Positions 5,893-57,684 of a stretch of DNA of 64,000 nucleotides are shown here, piece by piece. The notes under the pieces were generated by a model. It saw nothing but the letters and a program-made list of their open reading frames with translations, had not been told where the DNA came from and did not search any database. Origin of the DNA: Mangifera indica (Eukaryota; Streptophyta; Magnoliopsida; Sapindales; Anacardiaceae); NCBI RefSeq assembly GCF_011075055.1, contig NC_058152.1, positions 8,804,001 to 8,868,000 on the forward strand, in the 5' to 3' direction. The position numbers and the translations under genes were made by a program. The first letter of the stretch is position 1, and each line of letters begins with the position of its first letter.

Positions 5893-7260
5893 CAATAGGT
5901 ATATTTGATTATTACCATCCAATGCAACAAAAGTAAATAATTAACCTAAATATCTACCTTTTAAAAATGCAGCGTTAATACAAATAACTGGACGAATATG
6001 TTATTGAAATACACGGATACTATAACCCAATGCCATGTAAAAATATTTAAATCGTTTATATTCATCTGTTGGTGTATGTGTCATAGTCCTCAAATTACAA
6101 CGAACTAAATTGTAACAATACTCTAACAGTAACATAAGTAACTCTTCTAATATGTCATGCTTTTGTATATGATATATTAATTTTATATCGGTCGATGATG
6201 TCCACAATAATCAACCAATATAAATAGAGTCCTCAAAATTTGCCCTAAAGCTCGAGCCCCCGTTTGCCTATGATGAGGTAATATATGATCTCTAGAACAT
6301 CTGTGGTAGTTATCTATATGAATTAGTTCAAAACTATCATTTTCTCCCACCCTCTTTGCCTGTGTACGTCATTTACATTATTGATTACGATATTTAACCT
6401 CCCATATGAGTGTGTTTGACTTGTGCACTTTAAATTGATATCCCTTCTTAAGAGCATCTCGAGTTACTGCATCAATGGCATGTTGTTTACCTGAAAATAA
6501 TGTACTAATTTTTGGAGAATCACCATCTCTTTGCACTCCTCGGTTTCTAAATGTAGATGGCTGATTAAGAAAATTGGGTAACTAATGAAATGCATCAATA
6601 CAAACATTCCCACCATCAGGATTTGTTTGCGAGAAACTACTTGTATCTTCAATATCTTCATTAACATGTGTCTTTTCTTCAAACTATGGTTCTTTGATAG
6701 GAATATCATGCATAATCTTCCTTTCAAATTCACTTTAATTTGGAAATTTTTCTTCATTGTCACAAACAAATTCTTCTGCACTATATAATACATTAACATG
6801 AATATCATTTAAGTATGCAAAGTCTTCCTTAGAAAATTCTTGTTTCAAATTGATCCCTATATTTTGAATTCTTCTAAACCAATCTCATGATCTTATGGAT
6901 AACTATTCGATTTACCACCTTGTAAACTCTTATCTATTTGTTGAATATCTTAACTATCATTATTAAGTGTAGTTGTTATAAAAACTAAAATACATTCTTT
7001 AAAGAGGTCAGACAGACCATTAAGAACTTTAATATCTTCATCATTTAAAATTTCAACAAGGATATCGTCGTCAAGATGTCTTGGTTTCATACTTATCTGA
7101 ATGTTAAATACCGTTCAATCTATGTTACACTTTTCACTCACTATTTGGATTAATCCTTTGAATGTTGTGTATTTTGGAATTTTAATCAATTTCCTTTACC
7201 TCTAACATATTTTATTACGTTATCACCTCGTTCTATCCATTTTGAAGCACATCTATTAAA
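5893..7260 (-). pseudogene. mudrA transposase remnant of MULE A, N-terminal part
   Basis: The minus-strand translation matches the transposase of MULE B. Conserved landmarks are a stretch reading KPRHLDDDI (near 7080), then NDEDIKVLNGLSDLFKECIL (near 7040-6980), and the TSSFS/NPDGGNV-like segment near 6600-6650. These belong to the N-terminal domain of plant mudrA proteins. The reading frame carries several stops and shifts. The DDE core seen in MULE C is absent, since the match jumps to sequence from the middle of the transposase at 5893-6200. It is non-functional. Confidence 0.65.
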
Positions 7261-42171: not shown

Positions 42172-44720
42172 GTTGAACAAAAGAGTAACAAGGATGAGGG
42201 CAAGGATGTAATGTGATTTCTTATCGAAAAACACTTCAAGGCTCAAGTTACTATACATGGATATAGAGATGTAGAAGTTGTGATCAAAAAATTATTAATA
42301 GATAGGCAATTACAAATTTTTCGATGTACCTATTTCAGACACTTCTTGGACTTGAAGGATAGCCAATATAGTGAGGTTTTAATACATTCCTTCATCCTTA
42401 AAGCGATAAATAAGGTGACCTCAAGAGAGAAGTTATGGTTTCAAGTTAATAATATGGATGTGAGGTTTAGTTCGTATGAGTTTGCCATTATGACAAGCCT
42501 TCGATTTAGTCATATGGTCGATATTAACATTTATATTCCATAAGGCCATAGATCAGATCCGCCAGACATATTTTCACGGGTGTAAGTCAGTTACATATGT
42601 TGATCTAAATCGTGTTTTCTAATATAGGCCGTGGGGGGAGGACAACATTGATGCAGTAAAGTTAGCGTTGTTGTTTTATCTTCACATGAGGTTATTAAGG
42701 AGTGATTTGAGGAAAACAATTTCTCAGAAGATATTACAATTGGTTGATCATCTTGATGGGTTTAATGCATACCCAGGGGAAGTAGGGGTGTGACAGATGA
42801 CATATCGCTCGATTTATGATAATATTTCCCAAATTTCTATAGATTTCGGTCTGAAAAAGAAGAAAGAAAACTAGCTTAAACAGTATGGTATCATAGGATT
42901 TCCACTAGCGTTTTAGGTAATTGTGGTATTTATTAATTTAAAAAATTGTGATTAAAATAGAATTGATTTAATACGATTATAAATATATACAATAACTGAT
43001 TTAAGTTGAAATTGTAGTTTTGGATATACGGGACACTGGACTCGCTACATCGATAGGTGGATATCTTGCCAGTTTTAAAAGTTACCCAAATGTTGAGATG
43101 ACACATAAAAGATATCTCGGGATGGGATTCTATCTCAACTATCTTCACTGGAGATGTGGTAAGTATTAATTTGTTATTGATTAACATATGTATAAGGTAT
43201 AATAACAATGGATCACCCTATGAGGATGCCCTATTATCACCTTGTATAGAGGTTGAGGTAAACTGTTGGATTAACCACTATAAATTATTATTTTTGTTAA
43301 TATTAATTATCATTTACCCTTCATCTGTTGTTACAATAAGATCTCTGTTTGATCTATCTTAACACACCAAGCAAGGGAAAACAGGTGATTGATATTACCT
43401 TTCAGGATAACGAGGTCACTAACAATATGGTTGAGCTCCCTATATAAAGGGACATCATTTAGGTTGAAACTTTTCAAGAAATTTAATAAATACGATTGAA
43501 AAATATATTATTCATTTATTAAATTCATGTATTTAACTACAGTCGGTCTCGAAAGTTAATATAATCGACCTAACTTCACCTGTGGATTCTCCGGCGATGA
43601 CTCCTGTTTTACATAAGGTATTAAAAAGTTTATGAAAATCTCACGAGTTAATGTAATTTTAAATGGCATATTATTTGTTTTGGTGTAGTATTTTCACACA
43701 GTTCATGGTAGAATTGTCAAAGAGGGATTGCTCATTCGTAGCCTATACACAAATTCATTGAAATCATGGATCCAATCGTCAAGACTAATTGTGCAATTAT
43801 CAAATACCAAGCATGAGGAAATTTTCAAAAAATAGTATGCAGAACCAAATCTTTTCGAGAAACGTCATATGTACAATATAGGGAAAATGACCAAAATTGC
43901 CTTTTGGGGTACACTCATGGATACATCTAGATAGTTGTCTGACGAGGTGAGTTTACTTGATCAATTAATTTTGTTTTTAGTATAGAAGATCATTTAGGTG
44001 CATGATAACATTATATTTTCTATTTTTACAGCATGTAAATTTGTTTTTGGGATTATTACGTCGATGACAACATGATGATACTACGAAGGTTTGTCAGAAC
44101 TAGACGACAGTTCTAGCTTGCTTTGTTGCACACATCCCTCATAAGTATTGCTGCATGGATGAAAGATCAGTATAACTATCAATTTCCTCCGCTCTTCACA
44201 TGACTGGTGGATGTGGATTATCCACCTGATTTACATTTGTAACCTTGGGGTATAATCAATGAGGTCAGTATTTGAATCTTAATTACTTTTCAAGGAATAC
44301 TAAATTAAGGTCTAATATATGTATTTTATCAATGTGTGTAGGTTTTTTTCTCAATAAACTTCAATAATGCACATTGGATAACAGGGGTCTTGAATTTGAA
44401 GGAGTGAAAGATTATAGTTTATGACTCATTACAAAGTTTTATTGTTGATTGGAGCTATTTAGGTGAAAGATGTTAGGGTATACATCAATGATACCACATT
44501 TGCTAGCTGCGCGTAATTTTGGTCTCACATGGGTCGAGTCCACGGGATGATCCATTTGCATTGCATAGGGTGGTGGATATACCACAATAGATACCCCTAT
44601 CAGGTGATTATGGTGTGTTCATGTTATGATATATTAAGTGTTTGGCACTTGGCCGATTGTTATCTTTTGAGGGGGAGGACTCATTACACCTGCGTACTCG
44701 TTTAGGCACAGTTATTTTTT
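42172..44720 (+). pseudogene. DUF1985-Ulp1 cysteine protease gene of MULE B, dead
   Basis: A first block (42172-42543, after a TACAG acceptor) reads RQLQIFRCTYFRHFLDLKD and LWFQVNNMDVRFSSYEFAIM. A second (from about 42628) reads NIDAVKLALLFYLHMRLLRS and ILQLVDHLDGFNAYP. Together they are DUF1985, found in plant MULE-borne Ulp1 genes. Near the end the C48 protease core appears: HW with His at 44372-44374, VYDS with Asp at 44423-44425, then IPQ and GDYGVF. The catalytic Cys codon is now TAT (Tyr) at 44609-44611. Stops interrupt the frame. The product family removes SUMO or related modifiers; the role in transposition is unknown. Confidence 0.8.
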
Positions 44721-44867
44721 CAAGATATTGATTGACCATTATATTATATCTTATTTGTATATGTATATATGTTTATTCATTCATATAATGATTACTAGTT
44801 GAAATTTTATAGATACATTAATAAGTATAATCACAAATTTTAAAGATAATATATTACAATCAGAAAC

Positions 44868-44992
44868 TGTATATATGAAGTAACAACTACAGTTATAACT
44901 TTTATATCAAAATATATTACAATCACTAACTTTATATTTAAAGTAACAAGTATAATAACAACATTTATATCAAAATCAACAAGTATAATTAC
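44868..44992. repeat. Two-copy tandem repeat, unit about 63 bp, between the convergent genes of MULE B
   Basis: ATATTACAATCA...AAGTAACAA...TTTATATCAAAAT occurs twice in direct order, with a partial third. It lies where the 3' ends of the Ulp1 and mudrA pseudogenes face each other. Confidence 0.7.
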
Positions 44993-45019
44993 AAATGCAA
45001 TTATCTTTCATCTTTCTTT

Positions 45020-47556
45020 TTTCTTCCTAAACTTGGTGGTACAGAACTAGGTATTGGAATAAGACTCTTGCAATTCTATCTCTTATGTCTAGGTTTGTGA
45101 CATTAGCTACAAATAAGTTGTTCAACAATCTCTCATTGTGAAGGACATCTATTTTTATTTGCTAAACATCCTACACGGTGACGATGCACGAACAGTGGGT
45201 GGATAACACTTGCCTCTTCTAGATGGATCCACTCTGATTGATCTCCTAATAGATTGATAACCTCTGTATAGACTGTCCGATAAAAAACAGTGTTGTAGTA
45301 TGGATGCAACCATTGAATGTAGGTGGTGAGCTTCATATATCTAGCAACAATAATAACATGCATGCAAGGAATCTGTGATAGTTGAAATTTTGTATAGGTA
45401 CATGCCCACTTCGTAAGGTCGACTAGAGCATCATATTAGCCACTACCAAGAACCTGGTATTATTCAAATGTAATAGGATTCACCTCTAAGTTTAAAGACT
45501 TTCGCACAAATTTAGCAATCTTTTCTTTTACCTAAGGTGTTATTGGGCTGGTGCAAGTATTTGCAAATTATATAAATACAAACAGATATGGTGAGTAATT
45601 AAGTATAAGTTTATATAGTATAAATACAAACAGATATGCAAATATCTAAAAATCATATAAATATGTACTTACTTGCATGATTTTTTTCTTTCATAAAACC
45701 ATCACTGTAATGTACCTCTGATAAACTCGATTAGCATAGTAATGGGTAAACCTTGAGTATGTTTGACAAATGCATTAAACAACTCAGTGATATTCGTAGT
45801 CATTATATTATACCTATGTCCTAGGAAATATGCCCGTGCCTAACGATCAAAACCCACCTTACACAGGTATGCTGTTACATTAAGGTGTATACGGTCCAAT
45901 GACTTCATTATCTTTCAGAATTCATACTCTGTGTATGCTTTAGCTGTTTTCCAATACATCTATGTGACTTTTGCATTCTTCTTGTACTTGGATCGCATGT
46001 TATAATAAAGATAATGACAATAATAGCCATGGTGCACACCAGAGAATACTTTAGCCAATGTAGAAAATATACTGATATGTCGATCTGAAATCATAGCTAA
46101 ATGAAGTACCTCACCAAAACAATTCTTCAGCTTTGTTAAAAACCAACTTCATGTGTCATGGTCTTCCCTGGGACTGATGCCAAAAGCCAATAGGTATATT
46201 TGATTATTACCATCTAGTGCAATAACAATAAATAATTGATCGAGATATCTACCCTTTAAGAAGACAGTGTCAATATAAATGATTGATCGAATATGTTATA
46301 TGAATGCATGGATACTACAACATAATGTCATGTAAAAGTATTTAAATCGTTCCTACTTATTTGTTAGTGTATGTGTCACAACTTCCAGATTACAATATAC
46401 TAAATTGTAGCAATACTCCGGTAGCAATATAATCGACTCTTCTGGTGTGCCCCTTAATGATTGAAATGTTCAATTTCTCACCAGACATGCTTGTGCATAT
46501 GATATATCAATTTTATATCAGTCAACAATATCTGCAATAATCTCCTTTGGTCGATAAACATGATAAACTAATATAATGATGTAATCCAACATGTGTGATG
46601 ACTATCCAAATGATGTAATCCAAAACCATCACTTTCCCCAGCTTGATTGCCCATGCAGGCTACTAACATTCTTTGTTACGACATTCAACCACTCATCTGC
46701 TCATTTTTGACTTGTCTACTACAAATTGACATCCTTTCTAAAGAGCATCTCAACTTATCGCATCAATGATATGTTGTTTACTTGAAAATAATGTACCAAT
46801 TTTTGGAGAATCACTATCGCTTGACACTCTTTGACTTTTGAATATAGATGGTTGGTTAGGAAAAGGTGGTAACCAATGAAATGCATCAATACGAACATTC
46901 CCACCATCAAGATTTGTTTGCGAAAAACTACTTGTACCTCTGATATCTTCATTAACATGCGTATTCTCTTTGACTTCTGATTTCTTGATTAGAATATTAT
47001 GCACAACCTTTCTGTCAAATTCACTCCATTCTAAAAATTTTTCTTCGTTGCCATAACGAAATTCTTTCGCAATATACAATGCATCAACATTAACATCATT
47101 TAAATATGCAAAATCTTCCTCTAAAAATTCTTGTTTCAGATTGATCCCAATATTTTAAATCCCTTCTAAACCAATATTTTGATCTTCTAGATGACTAGTT
47201 GACTCACCACCTTGTAAACCCTCATCTGCTTGTTGAGGCTCATAACTATCATCATTAGCTATAGTTGTTACAAAAATTAGAATGCATTCTTTACAGAGAT
47301 TAGACAAACCGTTAAGAATCTCAACATCTTCATCATTCGAAATTTCAATCGGGATGTCATCGTCAAGATGCTTTGGTTTCATACTTAACTGAATGCTAAA
47401 TATCCTTCGATCTATATTACACTTGTTGCTCACCATTTGGATTAATTCATCGAATGTTGTGTGTTTTGGAATTTTAATCAATTTTCTATTACTTCCAATA
47501 TATTTTATAACATTTTCAACCTTTTCTATCCATTTCCCCCTATCTAATTGAAGCAT
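45020..47556 (-). pseudogene. mudrA-type transposase of MULE B, broken
   Basis: Read leftward from 47556, the N-terminal mudrA domain is clear (ECILIFVTTIANDDSYEPQQ, then FHWLPPFPNQPSIF and SPKIGTLFSSKQHIIDAIS), aligned with both MULE A and MULE C. The central DDE region (about 46700-45500) is fragmented. The C-terminal SWIM-like zinc finger is visible as KWACTYTKFQLSQIPCMHV just upstream of 45363. It is followed by LGDQSEWIHLEEASVIHP and a degraded zinc knuckle (CHKPRHKR) near 45100. The first 400 bp frame is intact. No functional enzyme is expected. Confidence 0.8.
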
Positions 47557-47864
47557 ATCTAGCTAGTTAGATTAATCCTATAATAAAATATATAATCAAC
47601 ATAAATAATATAACTGAAAATACTATTTACAAATTTTTATTACACAATTACATCTATTCCATATATAAATTATATATTGTAACTATTAATATACTTTGAT
47701 TAAGGTGATACTAATTTGGAAAAATATCACTTTACCCCTATATTGTAAAATATCATTTTACCTCAAATATTATCTAATATATCTCTAACACCTTTCATTG
47801 TAAAATATCATTTTATCCTCAAATATTAACTACTCTAATCCTCTAAAACCATTTATTGTAAAAT

Positions 47865-47873
47865 ATCATTCAC
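47865..47873. repeat. Left target-site duplication of MULE C (ATCATTCAC)
   Basis: Nine bases, identical to 57175-57183. Nine is the standard length for Mutator-like elements. Confidence 0.95.
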
Positions 47874-48465
47874 GGGATATTAATTAAAATAGGCAGCAAC
47901 ATTCTTGCCTAAACCTTTTTCGACAACAATTTTGATGTTTTACTTTTTTAAGCAAATTGTTATTTTCATTCCAAAAATACCCTTCATCTAATTTGTCAAA
48001 CGCAACGCTTGCCTTTCGCCAATTAATTGATTCCCTTTCACGAAAAACATTAAAATTAAATTATCTGTAATGAATAAAATTTATAAATTGAAAAACAAAA
48101 TATTTTTTTATAAAATAATTGATTGTTATATATCCAAAATAATAGATATCTCTTTAAATTATCTGTAATGAATAAAATTTATAAATTGAAAAACAGATTA
48201 CTTTTTTATAAAATAATTGATTCTTATATATTGAAAATAATGGATATATCGAAAATGGTACGTTTTTCTTGAAACGGTGCGTTTTCTTCTCAAACAGGTT
48301 GCGTGAAGAGATGTGAGAATTTAGAAAGGGGTGTGGGAAGGGAATGGGTGTGTTAAGAGGTGCAAAAATTTGAAAAAGGGTATGGAAATGGTGCAAAAAC
48401 CTTAGAAAGGGGTATGGGTACGGGAATTTGGAAAGAGGTGCGAGAATTTGAAAAGGGGTGCGGGA
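47874..48465. repeat. Left terminal inverted repeat of MULE C
   Basis: Pairs with the inverse of about 56745-57174. Shared blocks include CTAAACCTTTTTCG, AAAATACCC, ATTTATAAATTG and GTGCGTTTTCTTCTCAAACAG. The left copy is longer because a 98-bp segment (TTATCTGTAATGAATAAAAT at 48061 and 48159) is tandemly duplicated. Confidence 0.88.
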
Positions 48466-48850
48466 ATTTCTGAAAGGGTACGACAAGCATTGCGGGTGCT
48501 TAGAATGTATGACAATTACGGAAAGGGTGCATAGATTGCTGAAAAGGTGTAACAGTTTCTGAAAGGGTGCGACAATTTCTGAAAGGATGCGACAATTACC
48601 GAAAGGGTGCGACAAGTGCCGAAAGGATGCGAGAATTGCTGAAAGGGTGTGGCAAAGTGTTGCGGGTGCATGAAAGGTGCGACAATTGCCGAAAGGGTGC
48701 GTGGAAGGGTGCGACAATTTTTGAAAGGATGCGACAAGCATTACTGGTCCGTGGAAGGTGTAGGAATTGTTAAAAGGGTGCGACAACAGGTGCGGCAGTG
48801 CATGGATAGGTGCATTGCATTATAATCTAACGGGTGCGTGAAAACCCTAA
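48420..48850. repeat. Left subterminal minisatellite of MULE C, unit about 20 bp
   Basis: Head-to-tail variants of GAAAGGGTGCGACAATTGCT, at least twelve units, with some units reading GCGTGGAAGGGT or GCGAGAATTGCT. The array is G-rich against an AT-rich background and has no coding role; the long minus-strand frame across it (48154-48786) is only translated repeat. Confidence 0.92.
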
Positions 48851-49160
48851 TGTGTGGACGTGTGCCTGCATGCACAACTTATCATCTGTAATGAAACCCC
48901 TTTATTAAAACAATTTAAAAAGATTTAATAAGAAGAGAATTCAGTTCTTCATTAATATTTAGTTAGGGTAGATATTACGACAGATGAAAGTATTTACTGC
49001 AATATTAATAAAACTACGATTATTTATTTCCTCCAAAAAGAAATCCTTATTATTGTTTCACAAAGATATCTTTCTTTCTTCACTTATTTTTAATAGTCCA
49101 AATTTGCTTTATTCTAAACTAATCTCATATTTTTGTTCTTGAATCCATCCATCAGAAAGA

Positions 49161-51854
49161 ATGGTAGAAGCGATGTTCATGCTTGGATTCGATGGAGAAT
49201 GACACAACGAAGAGGGTAATAACCTCAAATATATCGGTGGATTTCAGAAATTATTTTTAGCCAATAGAATAATCAATTACGAAGGATTTATGGAAGGAGT
49301 ATGTTCTTGTTTAGGTATCAATCAAAGTTTTAATGAAATTAAAATTTATATGCCAAATCTAACAAAGTTTAGCGATTCGCCTTATTTATTGAAAGATGAT
49401 TATGATATCAGAATGATGATGTAGCTATGTAAGTCTCGCAAAAAGTCTCCCTTATTTTTTGAAGTGGTTTTACAGCAAAATGAATTTCAAGATAATTATC
49501 AGCAATATTCACAACCAGATCGAGAGATTCATCAAGGGATTGAACAAAATCCATCAACCAAAGTTCATTTCATGGATAACCAGTATACACAACCAGAAAG
49601 TGTACAAAAACGTGCACTAGGAAGTAGCAGGATAAATATAAACCATGATCATGATGGTATTGAGAATGATATTGGTTGGAATCCTTTTTCTCAAGACCTG
49701 ACACACGGGGAAAGAGGCCTAAAACCAATATGGGGTACACCTGAAGGCTGTTATCAAATAGATGATTTACCCAGAAATGGTATTCACCTTCAAGAAGAAG
49801 ATGAATATAGTGGTTGTAATAATGAGGGCGATAGAGATTATAATGGTGCGAAAATGTGTAATGATGTTGTCGATGATGTAGGGGTTGGTACGTCAATGAC
49901 AGCACCTGAAAGTTTAGTTGACACTGCTCCAATACATCGTAGTTGCAATCTATTTTTTGGTAGTCCAGAACCTTACAGAGATGTTGAAAATGAAAGAATT
50001 AAAGTTCATACCGTTGCACCATCAGACGTCAAATTCAAAGTGACAGACCAGTTTGCCTCTAAACAAGTTTTAATAGATACATTAAAAAGAGATGCAATAG
50101 AAAATGGTTATCAATTCAAGGTCTCGAGCTCAAATAAGAAGAGATGGGATATAAAGTGTTTACATCAATAATGCAAATGGAAAGCGAGAGGGGTCAAGTT
50201 AAGTAATAGCAATATATTTGTGTTACATAAATTAGAAACACATACTTGTCCTCGCGATATCATAAGACCTCACCACAGACAAGCAGGTAAAAGGACACTT
50301 GGAAAAATCTTATAGACTTTATTTACTGCTGGTGACTATATGTATAGGCCGAAAGAAATTATAACAGATATGACAGATAGGTTTCAAATTGATTTATCTT
50401 ATACACAAGCTTGGCGTGCAAAGAATTGGGCGTTGAACTAGATAAGAGGTTCACCTAAAGAGTTATTTAGATTATTATCGATATTTTGTTATAACCTTCA
50501 ACAACGAAACCCTGGTACTGTTACACAAATTGAAATTGACTCGGATAATCGATTCCAATTTGTTTTCATATCTTTAAGATGCTCTATTAGAGAATTTCGT
50601 GAGTATTGTCGTCCTATTATTTGTATTGATGGGGCATTCGTGAAAGGTCGATATTGGGGTACACTTTTTATTGCTGTGGGCAAGGACGAAAATAATCAAA
50701 TTTATCCAATTGCTTTCGGAGTTAGCGGAAGAGAGGAAACAATGACTTGGACCTTGTTTCTCCGAGCGTTACATAGATGTATTGGCGATCTCTCAAATCT
50801 AGCAATCATCTTAGACAGGCACCATGCCATCACTCGTTCTGTGAGAAAAGTGTTTTCGAATGCGCATCATGGCTGGTGTAACCATTATATAAAAGGAAAT
50901 ATGCGTGCTCGGTACAAGCAAACAAAACATATAAAGGGATTATTTTGGAAAACGGCGAAGGCTTATCGAACAGAAGATTTTAAGGAGGCTTTGCATATGA
51001 TTAAAGCTAAAAACCCCACTGCAGCAGCTTATTTGGAAGGAATTGACTACGCATAGTGGGCTCGTGCTCACTTTCCCGGTATCCGATATAATTATATGAC
51101 CACAAATATTGTTGAATCATTTAATGCTTTGGCACGACATGCATGTAAATTGCTAGTGGTGATGCTCATTGAATTCCTACGTTCAACCTTACAAAAATGG
51201 TTTTATACTTGTCATAATATGACAGGTTCAAACCACCATACATTTGTTACTCTTTGCAATATGACAGGTACAAACCATCAATTCAGTATTTACTAATTTT
51301 GGTTTGGTTATAATATCTTTCAGATACTTGCACTCATCCTCTGACTCCGTGCAAATTGATGGTCAGCTAATATGATTGTCAAACCAATAACTATTGATAG
51401 ATATGAAGTGCATAGTTCCGGTAGACTTGTCGTTATAGTCAATCTTGCAAAAAAAGAATGCAGTTGTAAAAAATTTCAACTATCACAAATAGCATGCACA
51501 CATGTTATGACAATTGCCAGATTTCGAAACCTCTCAAATTGTTATCCTTAGGTAAATAAATATTATTAAACTAAATATTGGAAAGTTGTTTACCGAGAGG
51601 TTGTTAAACCTTTGGGTGATCCTTCCGAATGGGTGTAACTTGAAGATATCCGTATAGTTAATCCACCACAAATGTAATAACGATGTTTTGGTCATCCCCC
51701 AGAACATAATAGAAGACCGTCTGAAGGAGAAGAAATACGTTAAGTTGAATGTAGCAGATGTCATCAAAAAGGGCACACACGTTTAGTTTGTACAAATCCC
51801 TTAACTGAGGCTACAACATCTTCAGCAGGTATGGGTTTGTCAAGAAGAATGTAA
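49161..51854 (+). pseudogene. mudrA-type Mutator transposase of MULE C, full length with stops
   Basis: From the ATG at 49161 one frame runs to a probable intron donor at 51226 (688 codons) without a shift. Six stops interrupt it, at 49200, 49422, 50169, 50313, 50439 and 51054. The MULE catalytic Asp residues lie in CIDGAFVKG (50628-50630) and ILDRH (50814-50816). A C..H motif (HGWCNHYIKGN) and NIVESFNAL follow. A probable 98-bp intron is 51226-51323. Downstream are a SWIM zinc finger CSCKKFQLSQIACTH (51459-51503) and a zinc knuckle CSRCHQKGHTRLVC (51750-51791). The enzyme would bind the terminal repeats and cut and paste the element. The stops sit where Trp or Gln would fit, implying C-to-T decay. 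Confidence 0.88.
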
Positions 51855-52414
51855 ATTCAGATAATGTTGAATGGGTATATTGCACATATGGTATATGTTG
51901 AATGTCTTGTCTTATGAATGAGTGCAAATTATGTTTCTTCAGCACAAAATAAACCGCACCGTTTGGCTGTTGTTTTTTCCCCTTTTCATTATTCTGATCC
52001 TGGAATTAATTCATTATTTTGTCAATAAAGATTATGAATACAAATTTAGCAAATTAACAGAATCATTTAGGCAACATTATAAAAATTCATCGTCATCTTC
52101 GTCTTGCGTTATACACTATTATGTAAAACTTTCGACAGCATTTCCTCTGTAATTTCAACAAATCCTAACCTGTATATACTAAAATCAAAGAAACTGCACT
52201 CCATTATATATATATATCCGTCAACCCAAACTCTAGCCATATCAACATATCAATAAAAATATGCAATATAAAATATGATATGCAATTAATCAACCCATGC
52301 ATACGCCTAAACCCTAATACACCTTAACCAACCAATACAAAATAAATATATAAAATTTACATACTATACAAAAAAAAATAAGAATATTCATAAGTTTATA
52401 TATAATAAGAAAAA
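51855..52414. other. Spacer between the convergent genes of MULE C
   Basis: AT-rich 560-bp spacer, expected to hold the two facing 3' UTRs. No further gene was seen. Confidence 0.5.
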
Positions 52415-54926
52415 TTAGGAAAATAGTGAATTCCCGCTATGCTTCCATATCTTGGATGCAATAATGTAACACATATAGGAAGTATTTGTTGCCCTAAAAT
52501 TTAATCTCTTGCCAGTGGCGAGATACTCTAAAATATATAATGAGAATATCCCGCAATCACTGAAGGTAATGCCTTGTTGTGGTACATCCACGCATCTCGT
52601 AATGGTCAACTATTCTAACTTTGGCTCAAGACCCCGTGACTCCCAATAGTTGGTCACACTAATAATAGACAGAAGATAAGAATAACGTTTCATAACCTCT
52701 AGGAACCTCTCTGTAAAGTCAAAAAATGCCTTGGATGAGTCATACACCGTCAAAGTCCACACATTTAGGTCCAATTCACCGCATGCCCAGTGTTGAGTTT
52801 CATAATTGATTGGAATATAAACTTGTAATGCAATAAAACGAATCCCATCAGTCAAATTTTTTACAATATACTTACCAAAATAATATATAAATATCAATTT
52901 AAATGGTACAAACCCGATCAACATCAGCCCATGAGATATAACTTCTATGTAAGTCTAGATAATTTATCCTTTCGATCGGATCTAATAATAATCGTGGCCA
53001 TTGATAATTATCTAATCCATAATTTTCTCATTCTTTTATTATATGCGGTAACCACCTATCAAAAGAAGTTTCCACACAAGTTCATTTAGCTGATGGAAAC
53101 GTATGTCGTAATACCACTAGATAACTATCAATATGCTGAAAAGTAAAATATTACAACACAATTGAGCAAACATTGTAAAATAAAAATATAATGTAAAAAC
53201 AATGTAACTTTTGCCTTTAAAAATTAATATACCTGATCTAGTAGCCATTGGTTATCTTCACATAATGGTTTCCACCACTTAATTTTATCACATGATCCAT
53301 ATAAATAAATGTTGCCCAAAGCCAGTTCTGGAGGGTCCCGTACCATTGCAAATATTCATACATGTTATTTTCTGCTTCCTCCAAATAGGATGACTGATAC
53401 ACCTCTTGTGCACGACAATGTTTGAAAGGATCAATGTATGGGTTTCGAAGTGCTTTACCCTTCTTCATTATCCTTCAATGTAATGTCCTCCGAGTAATGG
53501 AACGATGCTTTAATGGAGTTTCATTCATGACATCCGTTGTTTGTTGGATAGCCGCATCAAACTGGTTAAAATACTCAAACAGTACTTCTGTTGGTTCATC
53601 CTGAAAATAGAAAACAAAACACTTGGTTAATTTTCAAAATAACATTATTCAATTATTCAAAAATATATTATGTCAGAATATAGTTTAAAGACATACCACT
53701 TCTTTTGGGCTTGTTGGGTTTGGATGGTACGTATGTTGAAGCTCTGTCAACTTGGCTTCCATAGATGTTTAACGTGCTTCAAGTAGTGTTTGCCGCTCAT
53801 CAATGTTTCCAAGTCGTTCATCAACTTTTTGCATGAACCCTTGTAAAAGCTCTTGAAGTCTATCAAATTTATCATCATCTATCCGGGTAGATTCACTCGT
53901 AGGCATGCAAGTATGTGTTTCTTCAGCCAGCTAAGGCAATGATATAATAGCACTACGCTCAGGTGATTGCATAACTGATGACACAAGACTACTAACAAAT
54001 GTACTCCGTCACCTACGAACAGAAGTATTCTAACTTATAGGTGCAGGTAAGATATCTAGAGGGGATGCTACGCTAAGTTAGATGTCTAGAGGGGATGTTA
54101 TAACAATAAGAGTAGTATCAGATTCTTCTAGATCATCAATGTAATCTATAACATCTTCGTAATACGGTGATTGTCTTTCAACTTTGGGTGCAATCATACG
54201 AGGGGTGACAACATCCTAAAGATATTCAAATTAGGTTTATTAAAAGAGGTTTAGGGTAAACTAACAATAAATAATGTTGAAAAGCATAATAACTTACTTC
54301 AGAAGAGTTCAAAATACGATTCATCTCCTCCCAGCTTGGACCTTCTAAACTTCTCCACCTCAACATTCGAGGAATTCTCTTCACCGATTTACAAATCATA
54401 AAACTTTCCAAATTATTAAGTGTCTCGTATATCCAAATCTGTCATTCAAAAATGCATATACTATAAATAAATAAAATGATCAAAAGTATATACTTATGAA
54501 ATATTAAAAAAGGGTTAATATTACCTGAAATGCTAAGGTGCATCCTCGTATCCCATAAGTTAATGTTGGGATATCTTTTGAATACAGTGGATATAATTTA
54601 GAAACTTCATTATACTGTTTTAGTAAAGCCTCACCTAAAGATTTAATGGTCATCCTCCAAACAAGAGTAGCCTAGGGATATGAGTTAAAAGTATCCCAAT
54701 CATTAACAATACGTAAAATGTGTTCCGAAACAGTTTTTCTATTGTCTGATCCTAACAATGCAAAATGAAGCAGATATAGGGCAGATATTTTAATGGCATC
54801 CTTATCATTGTTTACCCATGCTTTTTCTTTAAATACTATTGCTACATCACCATAGGTAACAACTTTTTTACCCGCAAAATACTTAGATTTCAATTGTGAT
54901 TTTTCGATAACCTTGCTCTTACCCAT
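52415..54926 (-). pseudogene. DUF1985-Ulp1-like (C48) cysteine protease gene of MULE C, near-intact
   Basis: Exons read leftward. 54525-54926 carries DUF1985 (AGKKVVTYGDVAIVF, DAIKISALYLLHFALLGSD) with one TAG at 54672-54674 where Trp is expected (YP-W). After an 86-bp intron (54439-54524), 54298-54438 carries RIPRMLRWRSLEGPSWEEMN and ends in a GTAAGT donor. A linker region (about 54210-53240) is partly broken. The protease core is 52924-52415: His at 52790-52792 (THW-type, QHWACGELDL), Asp at 52739-52741 (VYDSSK), Gln at 52574-52576 and Cys at 52553-52555 (DCGIF), all present. One TAG (52610-52612) lies between Asp and Gln. Family members cleave SUMO-like modifiers; what this does for the element is unknown. 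A possible tiny first exon (MSSESSQ) ends at a GT at 56176. Confidence 0.82.
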
Positions 54927-55374
54927 TTCCCTACTGAATTTTAATCATGTAATGAGAGTAAATTCAACAGGGCCAAATCTACAGTCCACTCCATTAAACC
55001 GAAACCATAATTCCTCTCCTACCACTCTTTTGTTGATTTGTTGGAATAACACATAATGCAATAAACTGGAGCTATGCTTCAAAGTCTCCATCTTTAAAAA
55101 TCACTCGAAACAACATGTTTTGAACAATCTTTTCTGTGCATGAGTAAGAGTATTTTTGATTACTTGGACAGTTACCATATGACCTCTAACTTTTAACTTC
55201 GTAAAAAAATAATGACAGTCGTTATACCTCCTTTCATCAGGACGTTCATGAACTCCAATTTCCTAAAAAACTAGAAAATGTTCCAAAAATCAGAAAAATG
55301 TTAACAAGATTTTATACTAGTCAAATTACAATCAATATAATCGATCAAATTGCAAACAGGTGAGAAAAAATGTG

Positions 55375-55875
55375 AAAAACGTGGGGGAAAGTGTTAAGGG
55401 GTGCGTGGAATTGCAAAAGGGTGCGAGGAAATGCAAAGGGGTGCAGGAAAATGTTAAAAGGTGCGTGGAAGTGCAAAGGGGTGCGACAAAATGTTAAGGG
55501 GTGCATGAAAGTGCAAAAGGGTGAGGCAAAATGTTAAAGGGTGTGTGGAAGTGCAAATGGGTGTGGCAAAATGTTAAAGGGTGTGTAGAAGTGCAAATGG
55601 GTGCGGCAAAATATTAAAGGGTGTGTGGAAGTGAAAACGGATGTGGGCATATGTTAAGCGGTGCGGGAAAATGTGAAAAGGGTGCGTGGAAATGCAAAAG
55701 GGTAAGACAAAGTGTTAAGGGGTGCATGGATGCGTGAAGGGTGCGTGGAACTACTAAGGGGTGCATCGATATGTTAAAGGGTGCAGGAAAGTGTGAAGGG
55801 GTGTGGGAAAATGTTAAGGGGTGCATGCAAGTGTAAGGGGTGCGTGGATATGTGAAAGGGTGCAGGAGAAGGGGA
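55375..55875. repeat. Middle minisatellite of MULE C, unit about 40 bp
   Basis: About twelve variants of AAATGTTAAGGGGTGCGTGG followed by AAGTGCAAA. It shares the GGGTGCG core with the subterminal arrays but has a different spacer. It lies upstream of the DUF1985-Ulp1 gene, so it could include promoter sequence. Confidence 0.9.
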
Positions 55876-56349
55876 GTGGTCGTGAAGGTGTTAATGGTGG
55901 TATGTATATGTGAATGTATGCGTGACTGTGTTAACAGTATGAACAAGGAAATCAACACTCCAAAATAACATCTCCTCCTCCCATAACTACGAACCAACAC
56001 AATCAATCGGCAAAATCACATATTTTAAACCAACACAGTCAAACCGGCAAAATCAATCGCATAATCAAAACTTTAATCAACCAATCAACATCCATGCATC
56101 CAACGAAATACAAAATGAAAACCTAAATCTCATCCAATGTCCCAAAGCCGAATCAATGTTAGCAATAAATATGTACCTGAGACGACTCGGACGACATTGC
56201 CTTAGTTTTCTGATGACGGTTTCTTGATAGTGAATGGTGAGTGAGTAAAATTTTTGTTTTGGTGAGACTGTCGATCTTTGTGGTTTGGCTGACGTTTTGA
56301 TTGCATGTCTGACAGTTATTAATAATTTTATCACTCAGCGTACTATGCC

Positions 56350-56660
56350 ACGTGCCTCACACCCTTGCCATACCCTTTCGGCAATTGTCGCACCCTTTTA
56401 GCAATTGCCACACCCGTTCAACAATTCTTGCACCCATTCGATAATTTTCGCACCCTTTCAACAATTGTCGCACCCTTCTACACACCTTTTCAGCAATGCT
56501 TGCCACACCTTTTCAACAATTACGTGGAAGGGTGCAGCCAGAATTGCGGGTGCGTGGAAGGTGCAACAATTGGCTAAAGGGTGCGACAATTGCTGAAAGG
56601 GTGTGACAATTGCTGAAAGGGTGTGACAATTGCTGAAAGGGTGCGGCAGTTACTTAAAGG
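56350..56660. repeat. Right subterminal array of MULE C, two opposed halves
   Basis: From about 56360 to 56520 units read GCAATTGTCGCACCCTTTC (inverse orientation). From about 56521 to 56660 they switch to CAATTGCTGAAAGGGTGTGA (forward). The two halves could pair as one large hairpin. The forward units match the left array at 48420-48850. Confidence 0.9.
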
Positions 56661-56760
56661 GTGCGGGTGCACGCGCCTGCACGTAGCACCAACGCACGCG
56701 CGCCTGTTCGCAGGCACCAGCGCATGCGCATGCGCACGCGCACCTGCACCCCCATTCTCG
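56660..56760. other. GC-rich alternating purine/pyrimidine island
   Basis: About 100 bp rich in GCGC, GCAC and GTGC steps, including GCGCATGCGCATGCGCACGC at 56720-56739. It is the most GC-rich stretch seen in the window and lies between the array and the inner edge of the right inverted repeat. Frames across it are repetitive Cys/Ala/Arg and not genes. Confidence 0.85.
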
Positions 56761-57174
56761 TACCCGCATCCGCACCCCTTTCCAAATTTTCGCACCCTTT
56801 TTCAAATTTTTGCATCTCTTAATGCACACATTCCCTTCTCGCTTTCCAAATTTCAATAACCTGTTTGAGAAGAAAACGCACTGTTTCAAGAAAAACCTAT
56901 ATATCCATTATTTTGGATATATAACAATCAATTATTTTATAAAAAATTATTTTGTTTTTCAATTTATAAATTTTATTCATGACAGATAATTTAATCTTAA
57001 TGTTTTTCGTGGAAGGTAGACAATTAATCGGCGAAATGCTATGGTAAGGTTGAGAAATTAAACGAGGGTATTTTCGGATTGAAAAATATAATTTGCTTAA
57101 AAAGGTAAAACGTCAAATTTATTGCCGAAAAAGGTTTAGACGGGAAAGCGGCTACCTATTTTAATTAATATCCC
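56745..57174. repeat. Right terminal inverted repeat of MULE C
   Basis: Inverse of the left repeat, ending CCTATTTTAATTAATATCCC, about 430 bp, with only one copy of the segment that is doubled at the left. Confidence 0.88.
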
Positions 57175-57183
57175 ATCATTCAC
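57175..57183. repeat. Right target-site duplication of MULE C (ATCATTCAC)
   Basis: Identical to 47865-47873. Removing 47874-57183 restores a continuous MULE B terminal region that aligns with MULE A at about 7690-8171. Confidence 0.95.
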
Positions 57184-57590
57184 CATATACAACTATAATA
57201 TTTACAAAATAACCGATATAATTTTTATTAATTTCTTTTTACACTAAATTATAATTTATTATATAAAACATCATATATAATTGTATTATTAATAAAATAA
57301 TAATGATTGAAATTATAACAGGTATAAATATTTCGACATCACAAACTTTTTTCTTCTTGCTCGAAATCCCGAATACGAACTTTTTTTCTTTTTTCATAAA
57401 TCTCTCTCAGATATGTTAAAAATAATGGAAGAGATATGGTTTGTATAGAAATAAAGGAAAGATAGATTTGGTATTTTCTTGGAGCATTTTTGTTTAAATC
57501 CCTTGAAATAAGGGTGTTTTGGTTTAAACCCCAAAATTAGGGGTAAATTTGTTTATTAACCTTTAAAAAAGGTAATTTAATTAATTTTCC
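57184..57590. repeat. Right terminal region of MULE B
   Basis: Matches the right end of MULE A block by block: ATAATTGTATTAT, CACAAACTTTTTTCTTCT, GGTAAATTTGTTTATTA, then GGTAATTTAATTAATTTTCC. Confidence 0.8.
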
Positions 57591-57684
57591 AAAATAGGAA
57601 ATAAAAGAAAGGTGTCATGAACCTCTAGAGCCTTTAGGTTTTCATATTAACGAAGTTGATATTTATATCCATAAAAATGTTATG

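What the first reader, a model, noticed from the sequence alone, without database searches (positions are those of the whole stretch)
47874..57174. Complete Ulp1-carrying Mutator-like element with perfect 9-bp target duplication
Seen: ATCATTCAC on both sides, matching inverted ends GGGATATTAATTAAAATAGG, mudrA-type transposase (DD residues, C..H, SWIM, zinc knuckle) on plus, and DUF1985 plus C48 protease on minus with the 3' ends facing. Known: plant MULEs with Ulp1-like genes (Kaonashi/KI-MULE type) exist, but why a transposon keeps a SUMO-protease-like gene is unresolved. This copy looks recent enough to define the ends, gene order and gene structure of the type.
Basis: partly seen in the sequence, partly recalled or inferred. 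Interest (0 to 1): 0.8.

Follow-up and report, generated by a model that had tools for sequence, protein, structure and literature searches.

The report
Dead copy of a self-unsilencing mango transposon
A mango jumping gene carries, besides its jumping enzyme, a protease-bearing gene that looks like a known tool for undoing the plant's silencing of transposons; this copy is dead, but related copies that look intact sit elsewhere in the same genome.

Summary
In detail: a 9,301-bp Mutator-like element (47874-57174) with a perfect 9-bp duplication, inverted ends, a mudrA gene on plus and a DUF1985 + Ulp1 (C48) gene on minus. It is not recent: 12 in-frame stops in the transposase, 11 in the minus gene. 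The genome is mango (inferred). Four related copies, 99.8-99.9% alike, at four sites with different duplications, carry both genes without stops, so the two genes belong to one element. The minus gene has features of a VANC-type anti-silencing gene. Three noncoding stretches (before mudrA, in the minus gene's first intron, upstream of it) hold 20-bp-spaced arrays of GGGTGCG: 108 in each of those four copies, none in the coding spans. Mango relatives with diverged DUF1985 proteins have other motifs in like places (RGTGCG, TTGCG), while the outermost ends stay alike. The protease is under purifying selection (dN/dS 0.11-0.23 in six between-lineage pairs) and its catalytic residues are kept in 11 of 11 copies checked. 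Best reading: a sequence-targeted anti-silencer with its binding arrays, as in Arabidopsis VANDAL. Binding, demethylation and the protease's role are not shown. New member of a known kind.

The parts
47865..47873 (.). left target-site duplication ATCATTCAC
57175..57183 (.). right target-site duplication ATCATTCAC
47874..48389 (+). left terminal inverted repeat (276 bp at 86%, then about 236 bp at 80%)
56786..57174 (-). right terminal inverted repeat
48416..48733 (+). tandem repeats, mostly of 20 bp, with GGGTGYG cores, upstream of mudrA
49161..51831 (+). mudrA-type transposase gene, 12 in-frame stops; intron about 51228-51325 and gene ends read by eye (approximate)
50616..50894 (+). MULE transposase domain
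51435..51518 (+). SWIM zinc finger
52418..56197 (-). VANC-like gene (DUF1985 + C48), model exons 56197-56177, 55262-54525, 54438-54298, 54215-53697, 53600-53233, 53135-about 52912, about 52820-52418; 11 in-frame stops, a frame break near 53350
54639..55016 (-). DUF1985 domain (residues 90-215 of the model)
52490..52822 (-). C48 (Ulp1-type) matched stretch; His codon 52790-52792, Asp 52739-52741, Cys 52553-52555 (counted by hand on the frame), stop TAG 52610-52612
55389..55863 (+). 20/40-bp tandem array with GGGTGCG cores inside intron 1 of the VANC-like gene
56372..56665 (.). 20-bp arrays upstream of the VANC-like gene, cores first on minus then on plus

Best explanation
The window holds a dead copy of a mango family of TIR-bearing Mutator-like elements that encode their own targeted anti-silencing system. 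The plus gene is the transposase. The minus gene encodes a VANC-type protein: a DUF1985 part, a fast-evolving linker and a C-terminal Ulp1-type cysteine protease. The protein most likely binds short CG-containing motifs (AAAGGGTGCG here) arrayed at about 20-bp spacing in the noncoding parts of its own family, upstream of mudrA, in the anti-silencing gene's first intron and upstream of that gene, and removes silencing there, so that autonomous copies and gene-less copies that keep ends and arrays stay transcribable and mobile. The protease most likely acts on SUMO or a SUMO-like tag of a silencing factor at those sites. Shown here: anatomy, arrays, their restriction to noncoding DNA, motif change between lineages, purifying selection on the protease, recent copies with both genes free of stops. 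Inferred: binding, loss of methylation, the protease's substrate and the need for it.
For: Both genes free of stops in A1-A4 (four different 9-bp duplications, 99.8-99.9% identical) and in B3. GGGTGCG: 23 of 23 in the window copy's noncoding regions, 0 in coding, 0 in the other 54.7 kb, 100 shuffles mean 0.27, maximum 2; 108 of 108 in noncoding regions in each of A1-A4; 38-81 in A5-A9 and 52 in B3, likewise all noncoding. Commonest spacing 20 bp (A1 49, A7 39, B3 30 adjacent pairs). Genome-wide 571 paired AAAGGGTGCG against 0 for the reversed control pattern; 86 of the 100 places listed lie within 11 kb of a family match, 6 more in gene-less copies. D2 (DUF1985 exon 60% identical) has RGTGCG arrays and E1 (49%) TTGCG arrays in like places, repeated in two further E-lineage copies, while the ends stay TTAATTAAAATARGC. 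C48 dN/dS 0.11-0.23 in six between-lineage pairs; transposase core 0.06-0.12, DUF1985 0.08-0.22, linker 0.39-0.68 (intervals for four pairs). H, D, Q, C kept in 11 of 11 copies checked. Published VANC: DUF1985 proteins whose targets form tandem repeats, shown upstream of VANA and in VANB and VANC introns (PMC5735166 passages).
Against: No binding, methylation, expression or protease data. The profile search reached no Arabidopsis VANC protein, so kinship with VANC rests on the DUF1985 domain and on anatomy. VANDALs are described with degenerate TIRs (PMC10398659 passages), whereas here TIRs are long and in A1-A4 hold part of the arrays, so some array copies could be terminal sequence with another role. 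The motifs of all lineages share TGCG and D2 still has 5 GGGTGCG, so the motif change is graded. Single D and E elements were read in full; the oldest E relatives (L047-L050) showed no clear array. In the 100-bp clustering test the window copy (6) did not exceed the best of 30 shuffles (6) and A1 (7) barely did.
Confidence: 0.65

Rival explanations
1. The arrays are subterminal binding sites of the transposase (as known for other DNA transposons, recalled), and the DUF1985-C48 gene does something unrelated to them.
For: In A1 76 of 108 motifs lie in facing orientation on the two sides, 32 on plus at the left and 44 on minus at the right; gene-less copies L037 and L038 keep ends plus arrays, which a need for transposase binding would also explain.
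Against: An array lies in the first intron of the minus gene in W and between first and second exon in a young E copy (by eye), and D2 has one between the two genes. The outermost ends are almost unchanged from A to E while the array motif changes, although the transposase core is the slowest-evolving part.
Confidence: 0.2
2. The Ulp1-type protease is a captured host fragment carried as a passenger, without function for the element.
For: Ulp1 sequences in MULEs are described in print as transduplicated (PMC13317346 and PMC2528002 passages).
Against: dN/dS 0.11-0.23 between lineages, with upper 95% bounds of 0.17-0.30 in the four pairs bootstrapped; catalytic residues in 11 of 11 copies checked; C48 present in all 14 gene-bearing copies read.
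Confidence: 0.05
3. The protein works as a general deSUMOylase that loosens host silencing everywhere, and the arrays are by-products of slippage.
For: C48 is a weak sequence match to Ulp1 (1euv, E 0.012) and SENP1 chains. Arrays can expand by slippage.
Against: The intron array and the two subterminal arrays share core and 20-bp period but differ in spacer; in A1 cores are better kept than spacers; 571 pairs against 0 in the control.
Confidence: 0.1

Closest known systems
VANDAL / VANC anti-silencing system (Arabidopsis; PMC5735166, passages read)
   Same: MULE with transposase and a DUF1985 protein gene; short motifs in tandem arrays upstream of the transposase gene and in an intron of the DUF1985 gene; motif differs between related families; variable protein region with repeated peptides (SPPDI in P0001, by eye).
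   Different: Long TIRs; Ulp1-type protease attached; no VANB-like gene noticed; different motifs; anti-silencing not tested.
KAONASHI (KI-MULE) of Arabidopsis (PMC2528002, PMC13317346, passages read)
   Same: MULE with an Ulp1-type domain in reverse orientation to mudrA; the 2026 review links KIU genes to VANC and sequence-specific hypomethylation.
   Different: KI-MULEs are described as non-TIR; this family has TIRs.
Ulp1-carrying TIR-MULEs of melon and grapevine (PMC2528002, passages and one section read)
   Same: TIR-MULEs with Ulp1-type sequence, in either orientation; in grapevine downstream of the transposase.
   Different: No target arrays or DUF1985 are mentioned in the parts read; sequence kinship not tested.

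Membership tests
Mutator-like elements (MULE) | MULE transposase domain with SWIM finger | tested here: met
Mutator-like elements (MULE) | 9-bp target-site duplication | tested here: met
   perfect in 10 of 16 copies with both ends in hand: A1-A4, A7, A10, W, D2 (a run of T), E1, L038; 8 of 9 in A8 and L037; not found in A5, A6, A9, L003
KI-MULE (Kaonashi), strict sense | no terminal inverted repeats | tested here: not met
   TIRs in W and in A1-A4
KI-MULE (Kaonashi), strict sense | Ulp1-type domain in reverse orientation to mudrA | tested here: met
VANC-type anti-silencing gene | DUF1985 domain in a MULE-encoded second protein | tested here: met
VANC-type anti-silencing gene | short motif in tandem arrays in noncoding regions (upstream of transposase, VANC intron) | tested here: met
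VANC-type anti-silencing gene | target motif differs between related families | tested here: met
   candidate motifs GGGTGCG, RGTGCG, TTGCG; that they are targets is not shown
VANC-type anti-silencing gene | sequence kinship with Arabidopsis VANC beyond DUF1985 | tested here: inconclusive
   profile search found 4 proteins, none from Arabidopsis
VANC-type anti-silencing gene | binds the motif and causes loss of DNA methylation | not testable with these tools
   needs EMSA or DAP-seq and bisulfite sequencing
Ulp1 / SENP (C48) peptidases | catalytic His, Asp, Gln, Cys | tested here: met
   11 of 11 copies checked (A1, A5-A10, B3, D2, E1 and the dead window copy; A2-A4 not in that check)
Ulp1 / SENP (C48) peptidases | SUMO-cleaving activity | not testable with these tools
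   no assay; the predicted structure was too poor to use (mean pLDDT 36.5)

The most novel reading that the evidence does not exclude
One genome holds a graded set of matched pairs, each a transposon-encoded DUF1985-protease and its own target array (GGGTGCG at 20 bp; RGTGCG mainly at 9 and 11 bp; TTGCG mainly at 9 bp), in TIR-bearing MULEs, so that the protease is the working part of a DNA-targeted deSUMOylase that lifts silencing at its own family only, gene-less copies included.
Probability: 0.35. Interest if true: 0.75.

Novelty: new member of a known kind. Interest (0 to 1): 0.5.

Why it matters
Why MULEs keep an Ulp1-type protease is open in print: the 2026 review calls the precise function of the domain unknown (PMC13317346 passage). 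This mango set supplies recent copies with both genes free of stops, three protein-motif pairs of graded divergence in one genome, gene-less copies that keep only ends and arrays, and a selection measurement showing that the protease is kept. That makes both questions, what sets target choice and whether the protease is needed, directly testable.

Tried and rejected
Recent insertion of the window copy: rejected by 12 + 11 stops, an excess of C>T and G>A changes on its branch (169 of 322 against 79 of 262 on A1's branch) and decayed motifs (23 GGGTGCG, 12 GGGTGTG, 14 GGGTGCA against 108, 2, 9 in A1).

Dating by the two TIRs: not done, since TIRs of a DNA transposon need not be identical at insertion.

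Contig C56 as an independent copy or empty site: rejected, same flanks.

Two genes from neighbouring unrelated elements: rejected by A1-A4.

CpG depletion as a sign of past protection: inconclusive. Observed/expected is 1.01 and 1.07 in the two outer noncoding regions, 0.68 in the array-bearing intron, 0.62-0.80 in the other three spans, 0.45 in the rest of the window, and the motif itself contains CG.

Structure of the DUF1985-C48 protein: AlphaFold model unusable, so no fold search was made. Ends of the neighbouring older element N: not found. Profile search for Arabidopsis VANC: none reached. The EMBO J 2022 paper on these systems in eudicots is not held; of it I saw only its reference entries and other papers' sentences.

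Results against or beside the reading: A1-A7 pre-C48 dN/dS 1.56 on very few changes; C48 values of 0.41, 0.37 and 0.36 in A1-A8, A1-W and B3-W, as expected when decaying copies are compared, and 0.16 in A1-A7; in three of the four bootstrapped pairs some of the 400 resamplings gave saturated dS and were dropped (352-399 kept in the affected rows). A10 was left out of the regional motif count, and B3's left end was not fetched.
Full report
WHAT IS THERE. The element spans 47874-57174 (9,301 bp) between two copies of ATCATTCAC (47865-47873, 57175-57183). Its ends share a perfect 20 bp and an imperfect inverted repeat. Plus strand: a mudrA-type transposase with MULE, DBD and SWIM domains and a CX2CX4HX4C knuckle (read by eye). 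Minus strand: a gene of several exons with DUF1985 and Peptidase_C48, tail to tail with the transposase. The first four introns of the model have GT-AG borders; later exon borders are approximate.

WHERE IT IS. G000 has 391.4 Mb in 241 contigs and the window is C16:8804001-8868000. A search with the minus gene found a Mangifera indica protein, P0001 (LOC123224293, 866 aa, 73% identical over 99%), whose longest contig has 29,456,600 bases, the length of contig C1 here, so I take the genome to be mango (inference).

IT IS A DEAD COPY. Against intact relatives the transposase has 12 in-frame stops and the minus gene 11. By my reading of the codon list, 16 of these 23 are explained by C>T or G>A changes alone, one of them by B3's codon only, and two more are ambiguous. 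Changes unique to the window copy are C>T or G>A in 169 of 322 cases, against 79 of 262 on the branch of A1, as expected of DNA that was methylated for long (inference).

INTACT RELATIVES. A search with the left 430 bp gave 54 matches, with 40 of 883 candidates scored; with P0001 152 matches, 52 of 4,191 scored. I read ten loci of the lineage nearest to P0001 (A1-A10), one of lineage B (B3), one each of D and E (D2, E1), and part of a further D locus (D4). A1-A4 have four different perfect duplications, ends GGGATATTAATTAAAATAGGCACCT, length 11.87 kb (A4 12.77 kb), TIRs of about 1.68 kb at 95.4-95.5%, and no stop in either gene. They differ at 14-22 sites in 11.8 kb in the five of six pairs aligned, so they moved recently; no date is given because the mango mutation rate was not looked up. 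B3 has no stop at aligned positions in either gene (splice sites not checked). A5, A6 and A9 have stops in both genes, A7 and A8 in the minus gene only, D2 one in each gene, E1 one near the transposase's end. A10 has a perfect duplication and the minus gene but no match to the transposase query. So the two genes travel together in one element. Among the 14 gene-bearing copies read (A1-A10, B3, D2, E1, W) all match C48. Gene-less copies with the same ends exist: L038, 3,093 bp, perfect duplication; L037, 2,845 bp, 8 of 9; L003, 813 bp, duplication not clear.

EMPTY SITES. The window copy's flanks, joined, match 40 places across the junction at 83-90%, each over at least 456 of 500 bases, and the three junctions read hold the site once. 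The surrounding repeat belongs at least in part to an older MULE, N, which also has DUF1985 and C48 remnants on plus (42232-42943, 44342-44719) and a transposase on minus (matches within 45025-47538); homology to an empty-site locus runs from about 46183 to 47873 and from 57184 to about 57613. So one Ulp1-type MULE probably sits inside another.

ARRAYS. Three noncoding stretches hold tandem repeats, mostly of about 20 bp. Their common core is GGGTGCG, often AAAGGGTGCG. In the window copy all 23 lie in noncoding DNA; the rest of the window has none; 100 shuffles gave a mean of 0.27 and a maximum of 2. In each of A1-A4 all 108 lie in noncoding DNA, with 0 or 1 in 6.2-7.1 kb of flanks. Distances between motifs on the plus strand are multiples of 20 in 200 of 385 pairs within 200 bp in A1, 168 of 345 in A7 and 125 of 224 in B3. 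In A1, judged on the following repeat unit, the core is kept at 0.69-0.89 per position and the spacer at 0.39-0.80. The intron array differs in spacer from the two subterminal arrays but shares core and period. Genome-wide, the paired pattern occurs 571 times against 0 for the same pattern reversed; of the 100 places listed, 86 lie within 11 kb of a family match, 6 in the gene-less copies L037 and L038 (by position), and 8 were not examined.

MOTIF AND PROTEIN CHANGE TOGETHER. D2, whose DUF1985 exon is 60% identical to the A protein, has GTGCG (mostly RGTGCG) arrays spaced mainly 9 and 11 bp, before mudrA, between the genes and upstream of the DUF1985 exon; it still has 5 GGGTGCG. E1 (49%) has no GGGTGCG; its most clustered 5-mer is TTGCG, 10 in 100 bp, where the best of 30 shuffles reached 5 for any 5-mer with at least three G or C. 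In the same test B3 reached 11 (shuffles 4) and D2 13 (4), both with GTGCG; A1 reached 7 (6) and the window copy 6 (6), so for the latter two the evidence is the heptamer count and not this test. A second, young E copy on C8 has 17 and 18 TTGCG in the two noncoding stretches, the 18 between first and second exon of the minus gene (borders by eye); a third (C16:3384369) has 9 and 5 in 100 bp; the older ones (L045-L050) have few or none. The outermost ends remain GGGATATTAATTAAAATARGC in A, B (right end only) and D, apart from small changes in A6 and A10, and GGGTAATTAATTAAAATAGGC in E. That the ends stay while the arrays change speaks for an array-binding factor other than the end-binding transposase (inference).

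SELECTION. Nei-Gojobori dN/dS between lineages (A1-B3, A1-D2, A1-E1, B3-D2, B3-E1, D2-E1): C48 0.18, 0.11, 0.15, 0.11, 0.23, 0.18; stretch before C48 0.22, 0.32, 0.40, 0.26, 0.44, 0.24; transposase core 0.12, 0.07, 0.06, 0.07, 0.07, 0.06; DUF1985 0.15, 0.22, 0.21, 0.15, 0.08, 0.18; linker 0.55, 0.39, 0.68, 0.45, 0.57, 0.44; transposase N-terminus 0.40, 0.39, 0.38, 0.46, 0.35, 0.40. Bootstrapped upper bounds for C48 are 0.28, 0.17, 0.27 and 0.30 in the four pairs tried (A1-B3, A1-D2, A1-E1, D2-E1). Synonymous change is near saturation in the deeper pairs, so those values are rough; A1-B3 is the safest. Catalytic His, Asp, Gln and Cys are kept in 11 of 11 copies checked.

HOW IT MOST LIKELY WORKS. 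In Arabidopsis, VANC proteins, which carry DUF1985, bind short motifs arrayed in noncoding parts of their own VANDAL family, shown upstream of the transposase gene and in VANB and VANC introns, and cause loss of methylation; related VANCs have different motifs (PMC5735166, passages). [quoted passage not shown] The mango elements share most of this anatomy; they differ in their long TIRs and in the lack of a visible VANB-like gene. I therefore think the minus gene is the element's targeted anti-silencer, the arrays its targets, and the protease a selected working part, probably acting on SUMO or a like tag on silencing proteins. The last step is the weakest.

NOVELTY. The system is of a known kind; the mango family, its motifs and the graded series were not found in the searches made, which cover only open-licence PMC papers and of which I saw listings and, for the papers cited, passages or one section. 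The EMBO J 2022 paper on eudicots is not held and may describe relatives.

Noticed in passing
window 42232-47538 (and about 57184-57613): An older MULE with transposase on minus (PB1-like N-terminus) and DUF1985 and C48 remnants on plus, into whose 5' part the described element is probably inserted; its ends were not found.
   Followed up: partly
window 47721-47870: AT-rich tandem repeat (26 and 58 bp) just upstream of the older element's transposase, with TGTAAAATATCATTTTA; possibly that element's own array.
   Followed up: no
window 5893-6530, minus: A further MULE transposase fragment.
   Followed up: no
L039+L033+L040 (contig C40) and the P0002 matches: A second mango family (E, 7.86 kb in E1) with seven loci that match the first 148 residues of the annotated protein P0002 at 98-99%, apparently a recent burst.
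   Followed up: partly
L037: A gene-less copy that is an imperfect palindrome over its whole length (75% over about 2.85 kb) with 48 GGGTGYG motifs inside it.
   Followed up: partly
L029+L030 (A10): A 6.36-kb copy with perfect duplication that keeps the DUF1985-C48 gene and shows no match to the transposase query.
   Followed up: no
P0001 residues 1-64: The public gene model of LOC123224293 seems to begin inside the repeat array; the likely start is MSSESSQ further in (by eye).
   Followed up: no
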